A DNA stretch of 64,000 bases, taken from NCBI GenBank assembly GCA_944322885.1, contig CALUQH010000031.1:62001-126000 (forward strand). The letters are read 5' to 3'. The notes under the pieces are model-generated. The model saw only the letters and a program-made list of their open reading frames with translations. It was not told where the DNA came from and ran no database searches. Below, in pieces: positions 57,113-61,264 of this stretch. A program made the translations under genes and the position numbers. Each line of letters opens with the position of its first letter. Within the stretch, counting starts at the first letter, position 1. Origin of the DNA: Candidatus Gastranaerophilales bacterium (GTDB lineage: Bacteria > Cyanobacteriota > Vampirovibrionia > Gastranaerophilales > Gastranaerophilaceae).

Positions 57113-59323
57113 TTATTTATTTTTTTTGTTTTTATTATGTTTTTGTTTGCCATTATTTCGTCTTGGCATATTTGGGGCAGAATATGAGGTTTGTATACGT
57201 TTTACGCTGTAAACATCGGGTATTGCCTGTATACTTAAAATAACTTTTTTCAAAGTATCTATGTTGTCAAGTTCAATTCCGAGTTCTATAATACCGACTT
57301 TCCCGCTTTTGGATTTTACATTTGCATAGTTGATATTTGTGTTGTTATCCGAAACTGCAGCAATAATATCTTTTAAAAGCCCCATTTTTTCGGCTGTTTC
57401 AACCCTGATTGTAGTATTGTATGTTTTGTTAACGTTGTCCCCTGACCAGTTTATAGTCATTAATCTTTCTGGTTCAATGTGATCAAGCATCGGACAGTCC
57501 ATTCTGTGAACTGTTACGCCTTTTGCTCTGGTTACAACTCCTACAATGGGCTCGCCGGGGATTGGTGAACAACATTTTGCAATTGAATACATCAACCCTT
57601 CAAGCCCGATAATATCCTTTTCGGATTTTCTTTTTGTTCCGCCGTGGAAAGTACTTGCGGGCTGTCTTGGCTGTTCAGGTTTTTTGAGTTTGTTAACTAT
57701 TTTATTTACGGTTGTTTCGCCATAGCCAAGCGCAGCAAACAAATCTTCTGCTGTTAAATAATTCATCTGCTTGGCAACTTTTTCAAACTCGCCTGATTTT
57801 GTATATTCATCAAAAACAGCTTTTGTAAGCTCATGTTCAAGGTTGGTTTTCCCGAGTTCTATATGTTCTTCTCTGTTGTTTTTCTTAAACCACTGTTTAA
57901 TTTTAGAGGAAGCCTGTTTTGTAACGACAAAGTTAAGCCAGTCAAGACGCGGGGCAGGTGTTTTTGAAGTTAGAATTTCTACAATGTCGCCGTTATGCAG
58001 TTTTGTGTCAAGCTGTGCTATTCTGCCGTTTATAAGTGCTCCGACAGTTTTATTCCCGACTTCCGAATGAATTCTGTATGCAAAGTCAACCGGAGTAGCA
58101 TTAACAGGAAGATCAAATACATCTCCGTTAGGAGTAAATGCAAAAACCTGATCTGAAAATAAATCCAGTTTTACGGAATTCACAAAATCTTCGGCAGAGG
58201 CCATATCTTTATCATATTCAACCAGTTTTCTCATCCACGAAAACTGCATATCTGAAGGTGCATTGGCTTTTTGCGACCCTTTTTCTTTATATCTCCAGTG
58301 AGCGGCAATACCGTATTCCGCAACCTCGTGCATTTCCCAGGTTCTGATTTGAACTTCAAGAGGCTTTGAACGCGGCCCGATAACTGATGTATGCAGGGAC
58401 TGATACATGTTGCCTTTAGGCATTGCAATATAATCCTTAAATCTCCCAGGAATCGGCTTAAATTGGGAGTGAATAAGCCCTAAAACCTCATAGCATTCTT
58501 TTTCAGTATCGACTATTACACGGACTGCCGTTATATCGTAAAGGTCGTGGAATGCTATATTCAGACGTTTCATTTTGCTGTAAATACTGTAGTAATGCTT
58601 TGCTCTGCCCGTAATTTGAGCGTTAATACCTGCTTTTTTTACATCGGCTGTAATTTTGTCAATAAGGATTTTGACTGTAGCTTCTCTGTCTGCTTTTGTC
58701 TGAGATACAAGACGCGCTATTTCAAAATATTTATCGGGTTCAAGGTAACGGAGCGACAAGTCCTCAAGTTCTGCTTTTATTTTGTAAATCCCTAAACGGT
58801 TTGCAAGCGGAGCAAAAATATCAAGTGTTTCACGGGCAATCTTCTGCTGTTTGGCTGTTGTCATAAAATTAAGCGTGCGCATATTGTGCAGCCTGTCTGC
58901 AAGTTTTAAGAATACAATTCTAATATCTTTTGCCATAGCAATAAAAAGACGGCGGAAGTTTTCGGCCTGTCTTTCTTCTTTTGATTTAAATTGTAATTTC
59001 CCGAGTTTTGTAACCCCCTGAACAAGGGATAAAACGTCTTTACCGAAAAGATTTTCGATTTCTTCTGGCTGTGTATCTGTGTCTTCTAGAATGTCATGTA
59101 AAAACGCCGCTTCAAGCGTGTGAGAATCTACTTTTAACCCTACAAGTATTTTTGCAACTTCTACGGGATGAATAATATAAGGTTCTTCTGAAATTCTATA
59201 TTGACCTTCATGCAGACGTTTCGCAAACAGATAGGCCTTTTCGATTTCTTCAATTTCAGAAGGCTCTCTGTTTTGTGCAATAAGTTCTTTTTTTATATCG
59301 TCAAAAAGAGGTTTTTCACTCAT
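57113..59323 (-). CDS. spoT: bifunctional (p)ppGpp synthetase/hydrolase (RelA/SpoT)
   Basis: All four domains are visible. The HD hydrolase has FLHDILEDT with H76-D77; the synthetase has RFKDYIAMPKGNMYQSLHTS near 300 and AAHWRYKEKG; a TGS domain (VFAFTPNGDVFDLPVNATPV) lies near 400; and an ACT domain (TIRVETAEKMGLLKDIIAAV) lies near 640. With an intact HD motif it should both make and degrade the alarmone, as expected of the single Rel-type protein in many bacteria. The C-terminus is a basic Lys/Asn-rich tail. A length of 736 is normal. Confidence 0.96.
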   Translation of the reverse strand: MSEKPLFDDIKKELIAQNREPSEIEEIEKAYLFAKRLHEGQYRISEEPYIIHPVEVAKILVGLKVDSHTLEAAFLHDILEDTDTQPEEIENLFGKDVLSLVQGVTKLGKLQFKSKEERQAENFRRLFIAMAKDIRIVFLKLADRLHNMRTLNFMTTAKQQKIARETLDIFAPLANRLGIYKIKAELEDLSLRYLEPDKYFEIARLVSQTKADREATVKILIDKITADVKKAGINAQITGRAKHYYSIYSKMKRLNIAFHDLYDITAVRVIVDTEKECYEVLGLIHSQFKPIPGRFKDYIAMPKGNMYQSLHTSVIGPRSKPLEVQIRTWEMHEVAEYGIAAHWRYKEKGSQKANAPSDMQFSWMRKLVEYDKDMASAEDFVNSVKLDLFSDQVFAFTPNGDVFDLPVNATPVDFAYRIHSEVGNKTVGALINGRIAQLDTKLHNGDIVEILTSKTPAPRLDWLNFVVTKQASSKIKQWFKKNNREEHIELGKTNLEHELTKAVFDEYTKSGEFEKVAKQMNYLTAEDLFAALGYGETTVNKIVNKLKKPEQPRQPASTFHGGTKRKSEKDIIGLEGLMYSIAKCCSPIPGEPIVGVVTRAKGVTVHRMDCPMLDHIEPERLMTINWSGDNVNKTYNTTIRVETAEKMGLLKDIIAAVSDNNTNINYANVKSKSGKVGIIELGIELDNIDTLKKVILSIQAIPDVYSVKRIQTSYSAPNMPRRNNGKQKHNKNKKNK

Positions 59324-59397: not shown

Positions 59398-59688
59398 ATG
59401 ATTAAAGAAGTTAAAAAAGGATTGCTCATTAATATTCGCGTGTCGCCTAACGCAAGCAAAAATGAAATAATAATTTCAGATGATATGATAAAGCTAAAAA
59501 TCACGACACAGCCGATTGAAGGCAAGGCAAATAAGGCCGTTATAGAGTTTTTATCAAAACAGTTAAAAGTCCCGAAATCAAATTTTGAAATAGCAAAAGG
59601 GCAGACTTCTAAAGATAAAACTATTCTTATAAAGCTGAACAGTTCTGATAAAATAACTGAAATAAAAAATTTTTTCGATAAAAATTAA
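59398..59688 (+). CDS. DUF167/YggU family protein
   Basis: A 96-residue protein with the family pattern LINIRVSPNASKNEIIISDD, PIEGKANKAVIEFLSKQL and IAKGQTSKDKTILI. Structures of relatives show a small alpha/beta fold; the molecular function is not established. A weak AAGGAT site precedes the ATG. It is divergent from relA/spoT. Confidence 0.88.
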   Translation: MIKEVKKGLLINIRVSPNASKNEIIISDDMIKLKITTQPIEGKANKAVIEFLSKQLKVPKSNFEIAKGQTSKDKTILIKLNSSDKITEIKNFFDKN

Positions 59689-59789
59689 TTAGCAAAAATA
59701 AATATTTACGAATTTTATTAAACTTTGTACAGGGTGGTATTGCAATATTAAATTTTTTGTATTATCGTGTACTAACAGGGAAATTAAAA

Positions 59790-59876
59790 ATGTTACAAAA
59801 TCAATCTTTAAAACTCCATCATATCCATCATCATAGCGACCTTGAAAGGCTATGGGATTGGTGGTGCACGCTTTAA
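59790..59876 (+). CDS. leader peptide rich in His and Trp, 28 aa (attenuator)
   Basis: An AGGGA site nine bases upstream and an ATG at 59790 open a 28-codon frame that begins MLQNQ and ends with HHIHHHSDLERLWDWWCTL. Five of six consecutive codons at 59817-59834 are His, and three Trp codons lie at 59853-59864. The composition is that of an amino-acid sensing leader, as in hisL and trpL. The peptide-coding region includes one arm of an antiterminator (next entry). It is not likely to be a functional protein. Confidence 0.75.
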   Translation: MLQNQSLKLHHIHHHSDLERLWDWWCTL

Positions 59877-59952
59877 AGATCTTTCTGATAAAACAATTCC
59901 GCTAAAAAATAGTCTTTCAAGGAGCAAGAGATGCGTGAGGGACTATTTTTTT
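59840..59952 (+). promoter_or_regulatory. transcription attenuator: mutually exclusive antiterminator and terminator stems
   Basis: Antiterminator: CCTTGAAAGGCTAT (59840-59853) can pair with ATAGTCTTTCAAGG (59909-59922), 14 bp with one G-U. Terminator: AAAAAATAGTCTTTCA (59904-59919) can pair with TGAGGGACTATTTTTT (about 59936-59951), ending in a T run. The two stems share 59909-59919, so only one can form. A ribosome stalled at the His codons leaves the first arm free, favouring readthrough; a ribosome moving on covers it, favouring termination. The next gene starts 29 bases after the terminator. Confidence 0.75.
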
Positions 59953-59980
59953 ACTTAAAGAATTGGAGAAAATAAAAAAA

Positions 59981-61264
59981 ATGACAATAGCAAACATAAT
60001 TTCGGCAATCGGCAACAATAACAGTGTTTACCCTTTAATCGTACGCGACTGCGGGATAGAGGTTCCGACAAAAATTGCTCTGACGTATGAGCAGAATAAA
60101 AAAGAATCAAAAGGGATCGCGTACCTTGCGGCAAGGGAACGTTTTTTGGATGAATATTCCGTATCTGCAGTGTGGCTCGGCGGTATTCCTTTGGTCGGCT
60201 GGCTGTGTGACAAGTATATAAAAGCAAAAGGTCTGAATCCTAAAGTTAATTTGAAATTGTTCAAGGAAGAAAACGGAATTCAGGGGATTGATTACAATAT
60301 CAAAAAATTCAAGGATATTGCTCCTGATGCGGTAAAAGACTTATTAAAAGTAAAACAAAATAAAAAAATGTATGAAAAATTGCTCGCTTCAAAATTTATT
60401 GCATCAACAACAATTCCTATTCTGTTTATGGGCTTTATTCTGCCGAAACTTATTTTTGCTTCATCAGCAAGAAAGATTGAAAATTTGAGAAAAAAAGAAG
60501 CACAGCAAAAATCTACTGATAAGATAAGTTTTTTACAAAAGGATAGATTTTATAAAAATAAGGATATTAGTTTTTCAGGAAACTGGGTTGCAAAGGTCGC
60601 AAATTTTTCCGCACAGGACAAGATGGCTGTAACAGACGGCGGGTATGCCATCGGACGTGTCGGAACTGCAAGAAATAAAAATGAGGCCTATGATATTTCT
60701 TTCAAAATGGCAGGCATGATGTTTTTAAATTTTGTTGCTCCCAAATGGATTGAAAAAGCTTTGAATAAAGCTACAGGGGTAGAGCTTGATCCTGTAATGC
60801 TTGCTGATAAAAAATTTATAGAGCAGGTAAAGGACGGAAGTATATTAAATAATCTTCCAAAATCCGATAAAGCTGAAGATTTGTTAAAATTCGTTGATAA
60901 TATATCAAATAAAGATACCCAGTTTATTAAGTTTGCAAAAAAATTCAATAAAATACAAACTTTAGATAATGGAGTCAGAGATCCGAGAGCTTATGTTGAT
61001 ATAAAAAATCTGGCAAAATTCCGTAATGATATACAATCTTTTGCAGAAAACGCTAAAAATTTATCGAATGATGCTTTTAAGGCCTTTGTAAAAAAATCGA
61101 AGTTTGCTAAATCCGCTAATATTTTAACGAATGTGGCTTTAAGCAGTTTTCTTCTTGCTTATGCCCTTCCAAAAGCACAGTTCAAATTCAGAAAATGGAT
61201 AACAGGTTCCGATCTAGAACCCGGTCTTGCTCCGGCCGAAAAAATTGTTGATAAAAAAGTCTAA
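59981..61264 (+). CDS. unknown protein under attenuator control, 427 aa
   Basis: The ATG at 59981 follows GGAGAA by ten bases; the frame also extends to a TTG at 59963. I do not recognise the family. The N-terminal third has a hydrophobic segment around VWLGGIPLVGWLCDKYIKA, a second strong one near IASTTIPILFMGFILPKLIF, and another near the C-terminus (NILTNVALSSFLLAYALP), so it is probably membrane-associated. The middle reads KDISFSGNWVAKVANF and AVTDGGYAIGRVGTARNKNE. No metabolic signature explains control by a His/Trp leader. Confidence 0.75.
   Translation: MTIANIISAIGNNNSVYPLIVRDCGIEVPTKIALTYEQNKKESKGIAYLAARERFLDEYSVSAVWLGGIPLVGWLCDKYIKAKGLNPKVNLKLFKEENGIQGIDYNIKKFKDIAPDAVKDLLKVKQNKKMYEKLLASKFIASTTIPILFMGFILPKLIFASSARKIENLRKKEAQQKSTDKISFLQKDRFYKNKDISFSGNWVAKVANFSAQDKMAVTDGGYAIGRVGTARNKNEAYDISFKMAGMMFLNFVAPKWIEKALNKATGVELDPVMLADKKFIEQVKDGSILNNLPKSDKAEDLLKFVDNISNKDTQFIKFAKKFNKIQTLDNGVRDPRAYVDIKNLAKFRNDIQSFAENAKNLSNDAFKAFVKKSKFAKSANILTNVALSSFLLAYALPKAQFKFRKWITGSDLEPGLAPAEKIVDKKV

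What the first reader, a model, noticed from the sequence alone, without database searches (positions are those of the whole stretch)
59790..59980. A His/Trp leader-peptide attenuator controls a membrane protein of unknown function
A 28-codon leader with HHIHHH and WDWW precedes a strong terminator, and a 14-bp antiterminator stem uses part of the leader coding sequence and part of the terminator stem. The pairing geometry is self-consistent and mutually exclusive. Leader-peptide attenuators normally sit before amino-acid biosynthesis genes; here the next gene (59981-61264) has several hydrophobic segments and no recognised metabolic domain. It may be a transporter-like or stress protein regulated by histidine (or charged tRNA-His) supply, or the leader may sense slow translation in general. 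Stalling at His would favour readthrough, stalling at Trp would favour termination.
Basis: partly seen in the sequence, partly recalled or inferred. Interest (0 to 1): 0.82.

Follow-up and report, generated by a model that had tools for sequence, protein, structure and literature searches.

The report
Histidine-sensing switch before unknown membrane protein
In a large group of gut bacteria (Gastranaerophilales), a short histidine-rich leader peptide and a two-state RNA fold sit in front of an unrecognised membrane-protein gene that is found almost only in species unable to make histidine, so the gene probably helps the cell obtain histidine and is switched on when histidine runs short.

Summary
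A 28-codon leader (59790-59876, MLQNQSLKLHHIHHHSDLERLWDWWCTL) lies before a 427-aa gene, with a 14-bp antiterminator that excludes the terminator. Relatives settle its reality. All 81 aligned orthologues and 20 further loci across Ca. Gastranaerophilales have a His-rich leader here (0 of 282 control genes). Both competing folds covary strongly in 71 sequences. The Trp half is not conserved. Key new evidence: hisD and this gene almost exclude each other (both in 6 of 383 genomes, about 60 expected), also within genera; the window's genus lacks hisD and hisF. Best reading: a histidine-starvation attenuator controlling a histidine-acquisition protein, probably an importer, without Pfam, NCBIfam or PDB relatives. 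The attenuator is well supported; the importer role is inference. A paralogous gene has an unrelated conserved leader ending NL(I/V)WGL-stop, an arrest-peptide candidate.

The parts
59740..59768 (+). Candidate promoter (TTGCAA - 17 nt - TATCGT)
   Evidence: Read by eye; TTGCAA with an AT-rich -10 recurs in many orthologues. The consensus scan found no site here, so weak.
59777..59782 (+). Shine-Dalgarno of the leader ORF (AGGGAA)
   Evidence: Sequence; GGAAA-type site before the ATG in many relatives.
59790..59876 (+). Leader ORF MLQNQSLKLHHIHHHSDLERLWDWWCTL*
   Evidence: His-rich leader ORF at this place in all 81 aligned loci and 20 of 20 further loci.
59817..59834 (+). Sensor His codons (CAT CAT ATC CAT CAT CAT)
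   Evidence: 3-7 His per leader in relatives, CAT 342 and CAC 20; last His codon ends exactly 5 nt before the antiterminator arm in 71 of 71.
59840..59853 (+). Antiterminator 5' arm (region 2)
   Evidence: 14 pairs with 59909-59922; 92.0% of cells paired over 71 sequences, 9 of 14 pairs with changes on both sides.
59855..59860 (+). Antiterminator extension GGATTG (GAATTG in relatives), pairs with 59894-59899
   Evidence: 94.3% of cells paired.
59894..59899 (+). Shared arm CAATTC: pairs with the leader end (ON) or with the SD-proximal GAATTG (OFF)
   Evidence: compensatory CGATTC:GAATCG in L118 and L132.
59908..59922 (+). Region 3: antiterminator 3' arm (59909-59922) and terminator 5' arm (59908-59918)
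59937..59952 (+). Terminator 3' arm (59937-59947) and U-run
   Evidence: 86.3% of cells paired, 9 of 11 pairs with changes on both sides; absent from some clades.
59960..59968 (+). GAATTG plus gene Shine-Dalgarno GGAG (59965-59968)
   Evidence: SD-proximal helix 96.7% of cells paired, changes on both sides in 3 of 6 pairs.
59981..61264 (+). Regulated gene: 427-aa membrane-associated protein, predicted histidine-acquisition protein
   Evidence: near-exclusion with hisD.

Best explanation
The region is a histidine-responsive leader-peptide attenuator of Ca. Gastranaerophilales. When charged tRNA-His is scarce the ribosome stalls on the His codons, the arm just downstream (59840-59860) stays free and pairs with 59894-59922, so the terminator and the SD-proximal helix cannot form and the gene is expressed. 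When histidine is ample the ribosome runs on to the leader stop, which in most species lies at the end of that arm; the arm is covered, and the terminator plus the CAATTC:GAATTG helix form, giving premature termination and probably a less accessible start site. The regulated gene encodes a helical, membrane-associated protein of a family confined to this order and its near kin. Because it occurs almost only in genomes without histidine biosynthesis, it most likely serves histidine acquisition, probably as an importer or importer subunit. Shown here: conserved leader, His codons, spacing, two covarying exclusive folds, phyletic exclusion with hisD. Inferred: ribosome stalling, direction of control, transport function.
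For: His-rich leader in all 81 aligned loci and 20 of 20 more, while downstream sequence and even the whole RNA architecture change (L194, L195, L198; L122 group). Covariation: antiterminator 92.7% of cells paired, 146 cells changed on both sides against 60 in shuffles; OFF structure 89.9% and 118 against 37; slid controls fall to 30-56%. Last His codon exactly 5 nt from the arm in 71 of 71; constrained folding gives mean antiterminator probability 0.38 with the ribosome at the middle His codon and 0.02 at the leader stop, higher in 70 of 71. hisD in 101, the gene in 227, both in 6 of 383 genomes; Fisher odds ratio 0.017, p 6e-40; holds within genera g6, g21, g41 and among argG-negative genomes. 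The genus has no hisD and no hisF above cut-off, but hisS is present in 32 of 33.
Against: No expression data. In the window's own species the leader ends 21 nt past the arm, and equilibrium folding with a ribosome at that stop, or with no ribosome, still gives the antiterminator (0.98 and 0.92), so its OFF state needs co-transcriptional effects or control is looser there. The protein has only two clear hydrophobic segments by Kyte-Doolittle (135-163, 378-399), no transporter fold match and no obvious partner genes. 61 genomes have neither hisD nor the gene, so other routes to histidine exist. The Fisher tests are not fully corrected for shared ancestry. The SD-proximal helix covers only the first G of GGAG.
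Confidence: 0.7

Rival explanations
1. The attenuator senses histidine as described, but the protein is not a transporter: it is another product needed in His-auxotrophs, such as an envelope, protease or peptide-scavenging factor, or a starvation protein.
For: No transporter fold, no Pfam, NCBIfam or PDB relative; few clear membrane segments; neighbourhood with a relA/spoT-type gene in 50 of 80 loci.
Against: Near-exclusion with hisD fits direct nutrient acquisition most simply; the association persists in argG-negative genomes.
Confidence: 0.2
2. The leader acts as a nascent-peptide or metal-binding sensor (His-rich peptide), not as a codon-based sensor of charged tRNA-His.
For: His clusters bind metal ions in general; the clade shows at least one peptide-type leader, upstream of the paralogue.
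Against: Residues other than His are poorly conserved, His number and spacing vary (3-7), and the position of the run relative to the arm is fixed, as expected of codon-based stalling; the target tracks hisD loss.
Confidence: 0.06
3. One reading: His stalling favours read-through, Trp stalling favours termination.
For: The geometry in the window allows it: a ribosome on the first Trp codons would cover the arm.
Against: Trp runs exist only in the closest relatives (L062-L065, with single or paired W in a few others); most leaders stop before that point.
Confidence: 0.04

Closest known systems
his operon leader of enterobacteria (Rfam RF00514) and the His-leader attenuators of some Firmicutes (PMC9413887)
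   Same: Short leader with a His run, mutually exclusive antiterminator and terminator; three to five His codons in a row in the Firmicutes cases (PMC9413887).
   Different: Different lineage and sequence, no Rfam match; target is a single uncharacterised membrane protein, not a his operon; extra SD-proximal helix; some clades without a terminator.
Attenuators that sequester the ribosome-binding site (noted in PMC9413887; SD-sequestering T-boxes in PMC1262725)
   Same: An alternative fold competes with access to the start site.
   Different: Here transcriptional and translational versions appear as variants of one orthologous element within one bacterial order.
T-box control of histidine transporters (hisXYZ, yuiF) in Firmicutes, including His-auxotrophs (PMC9413887)
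   Same: tRNA-His-responsive control of histidine acquisition.
   Different: Translated leader instead of direct tRNA binding; target protein unrelated to known transporters.

Membership tests
Leader-peptide attenuator of the his-leader type | Short translated leader with clustered His codons | tested here: met
   (translation itself inferred from SD, frame and conservation).
Leader-peptide attenuator of the his-leader type | Mutually exclusive antiterminator and terminator or sequestor | tested here: met
   Both helices covary and share an arm.
Leader-peptide attenuator of the his-leader type | His stalling favours, leader completion disfavours the ON fold | tested here: met
   Constrained folding, 70 of 71 sequences in the expected direction; in the window's own species the difference is negligible because its stop is distal.
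Leader-peptide attenuator of the his-leader type | Target gene makes or imports histidine | tested here: inconclusive
   Target is not a his gene; near-exclusion with hisD supports acquisition.
Leader-peptide attenuator of the his-leader type | Response to histidyl-tRNA level | not testable with these tools
   Needs reporter or transcript-end data.
Rfam RF00514 His leader | Match to the covariance model | tested here: not met
   No match in the window or in L001, L122, L194 at E up to 0.5.
T-box riboswitch | Match to the T-box model | tested here: not met
Trp attenuator | Conserved tandem Trp codons | tested here: not met
   24 Trp against 362 His codons over 81 leaders, tandem Trp only in the window's nearest relatives.
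Known transporter families | Profile or fold match | tested here: not met
   Pfam, NCBIfam, PDB by sequence and by fold.

The most novel reading that the evidence does not exclude
The 427-aa protein founds a new family of histidine importers (or importer subunits) with an undescribed fold, which took the place of histidine biosynthesis repeatedly in Gastranaerophilales; its paralogues serve other substrates, and two of the subfamilies carry their own leader-encoded sensor (a His codon run in one, a conserved C-terminal NL(I/V)WGL arrest-type peptide in another).
Probability: 0.35. Interest if true: 0.8.

Novelty: new variant of a known kind. Interest (0 to 1): 0.62.

Why it matters
It gives a testable function to a gene family with no known relative in a widespread but little-studied gut lineage, links it to repeated absence of histidine biosynthesis, and offers a natural series in which one orthologous leader element appears to have moved between transcriptional and translational control while keeping its His sensor.

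Tried and rejected
Rfam, T-box and RF00514 matches: none. Trp sensing: not conserved. Other His leaders in the same genome: pattern CAYCAYNNNCAYCAY gave 13 places, and inspection of the others showed no convincing short leader. His leader before hisD in six hisD-bearing genomes: none recognised. Protein identity by Pfam, NCBIfam, PDB sequence and fold, viral folds: nothing significant. Two AlphaFold2 models (mean pLDDT 77 and 80) show a mostly helical protein. The probability that GGAG itself is unpaired was a poor read-out of the switch (weak, mixed) because the helix only abuts the SD; helix probabilities were used instead. A region 1:2 hairpin of the last His codon with the arm is longer than after letter shuffles but shows no covariation. 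A further helix CACGC (59867-59871):GCGTG (59933-59937), possibly a pseudoknot, has moderate support (68.6% of cells paired, 36 double changes against 20 in shuffles) and is absent from the short leaders.

Full report
1. The sequence. The window lies in a 1.86-Mb genome (G000, 97.7% complete). Relatives of the regulated gene in named genomes are mostly deposited as Candidatus Gastranaerophilales (taxonomy). The leader ORF 59790-59876 reads MLQNQSLKLHHIHHHSDLERLWDWWCTL and is followed by the 427-aa ORF 59981-61264, which has no Pfam domain.

2. Conservation. Twenty-eight of 33 genomes of the genus have a close orthologue (68-100% identity), and the same leader precedes it. In a scan of GTDB species 194 loci encode relatives; of the 80 kept plus the window, all 81 have a short His-rich ORF directly upstream, as do 20 further loci chosen across genera. 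With a strict ATG rule 80 of 81 pass, against 3 of 1620 random windows and 0 of 282 upstream regions of other genes in the same loci. His codons are both CAT (342) and CAC (20). Residues before and after the His run vary; WDWW appears only in the nearest relatives.

3. The switch. On 71 aligned leaders (A4) the antiterminator, with its extension onto CAATTC, has 92.7% of cells paired and 146 cells changed on both sides (shuffled mean 60; slid controls 33-56% paired). The alternative, terminator plus CAATTC:GAATTG, has 89.9% and 118 (shuffled mean 37; slid 30-53%). The two share the arm 59894-59922 and cannot coexist. The last His codon ends 5 nt before the antiterminator arm in all 71, and the leader stop most often begins at the arm's last base (38 of 71). 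Masking a ribosome footprint at the first or middle His codon gives mean antiterminator probabilities of 0.39 and 0.38; at the leader stop 0.02; with no ribosome 0.07. This is the classical attenuation logic: stalled on His, ON; completed leader or no translation, OFF.

4. A second level of control. CAATTC also pairs with the GAATTG that runs into the gene's GGAG. In some clades (L122, L126, L128, L131, L134; L094, L095) no U-run terminator is seen and a longer helix of this kind remains; in L194 and L195 the whole architecture differs, with complementary runs that reach into the SD itself, yet the His leader persists. This suggests that the same His sensor works through termination, translation initiation, or both, depending on lineage. 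This step rests on complementarity read from the sequences and the covariation, not on experiment.

5. The target. The family is confined to the order and its near kin: in a class-wide sample, strong matches lie in family f1, one in a sister family (f2) and weak ones in f10. AlphaFold2 gives a mostly helical model (pLDDT 80) with no significant match among solved or viral structures. hisD (TIGR00069) is present in 101 of 383 genomes of the family, the target in 227, both in only 6 (odds ratio 0.017, p 6e-40). The exclusion is seen inside genera g21 (1 both, 13 and 13), g41 (0 both, 31 and 7) and g6 (3 both, 8 and 11), counted from listed genomes, and holds among argG-negative genomes (5 of 79 against 221 of 281). 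Two of the six exceptions (G193, G311) carry the two highest-scoring hisD copies, in his clusters, which may be later acquisitions. The window's genus has no hisD and no hisF above cut-off in 33 genomes, but hisS above cut-off in 32 of 33: these bacteria probably need external histidine. A His-starvation attenuator before a membrane-associated protein that replaces His biosynthesis is most simply a histidine-acquisition system.

6. Limits. The window's species is not the best model of its own family: its leader runs 21 nt past the arm, and equilibrium folding leaves the antiterminator formed at that stop, so control may be leaky or rely on co-transcriptional folding. The importer role is an inference from phyletic pattern and regulation. 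Fisher tests treat genomes as independent apart from the within-genus tables, in which genomes with neither gene were counted only where their genus label was printed. The protein has few clear membrane segments.

7. Known relatives. His-leader attenuators are known before his operons of Proteobacteria and of some Firmicutes, and T-boxes control His transporters in Firmicutes; replacement of the terminator by RBS sequestration is also described (PMC9413887), as are incomplete or SD-sequestering elements in Actinobacteria (PMC1262725). My paper searches turned up no such element described for Gastranaerophilales or Melainabacteria. Hence: a new variant of a known kind, with a new target family.

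Noticed in passing
G000:C39 (L142, gene from about base 628) and orthologous upstream regions in L143-L161, L233-L258: A paralogue of the window protein (about 29% identity) is preceded by an unrelated short ORF with a conserved C-terminus directly before the stop...KLMNLIWGL*, MNLVWGL*, VANLLWGL*; found in 41 of 46 upstream regions including a sister family. N, L, W, G and L are kept while their codons (except TGG) and the stop codons vary, as expected of an arrest-type leader peptide.
   Followed up: partly
L162-L177 (upstream of the ~530-aa third paralogue): The third paralogue shows no conserved leader ORF, so leader control is seen in two of the three subfamilies.
   Followed up: partly
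window 57113-59323 (-), 59398-59688 (+): A relA/spoT-type gene and a DUF167 (YggU) gene lie upstream; found upstream in 50 and 54 of 80 relatives' loci.
   Followed up: partly
family f1 genomes: argG above cut-off in only 22 of 383 genomes: most of the family probably needs external arginine or citrulline as well.
   Followed up: no
genomes listed as 'neither' (e.g. G025, G026): 61 genomes have neither hisD nor the window protein; how they obtain histidine is unexplained.
   Followed up: no
window 59867-59871 and 59933-59937: CACGC:GCGTG complementarity with compensatory changes in relatives, possibly a pseudoknot of the antiterminator loop with the terminator loop.
   Followed up: partly
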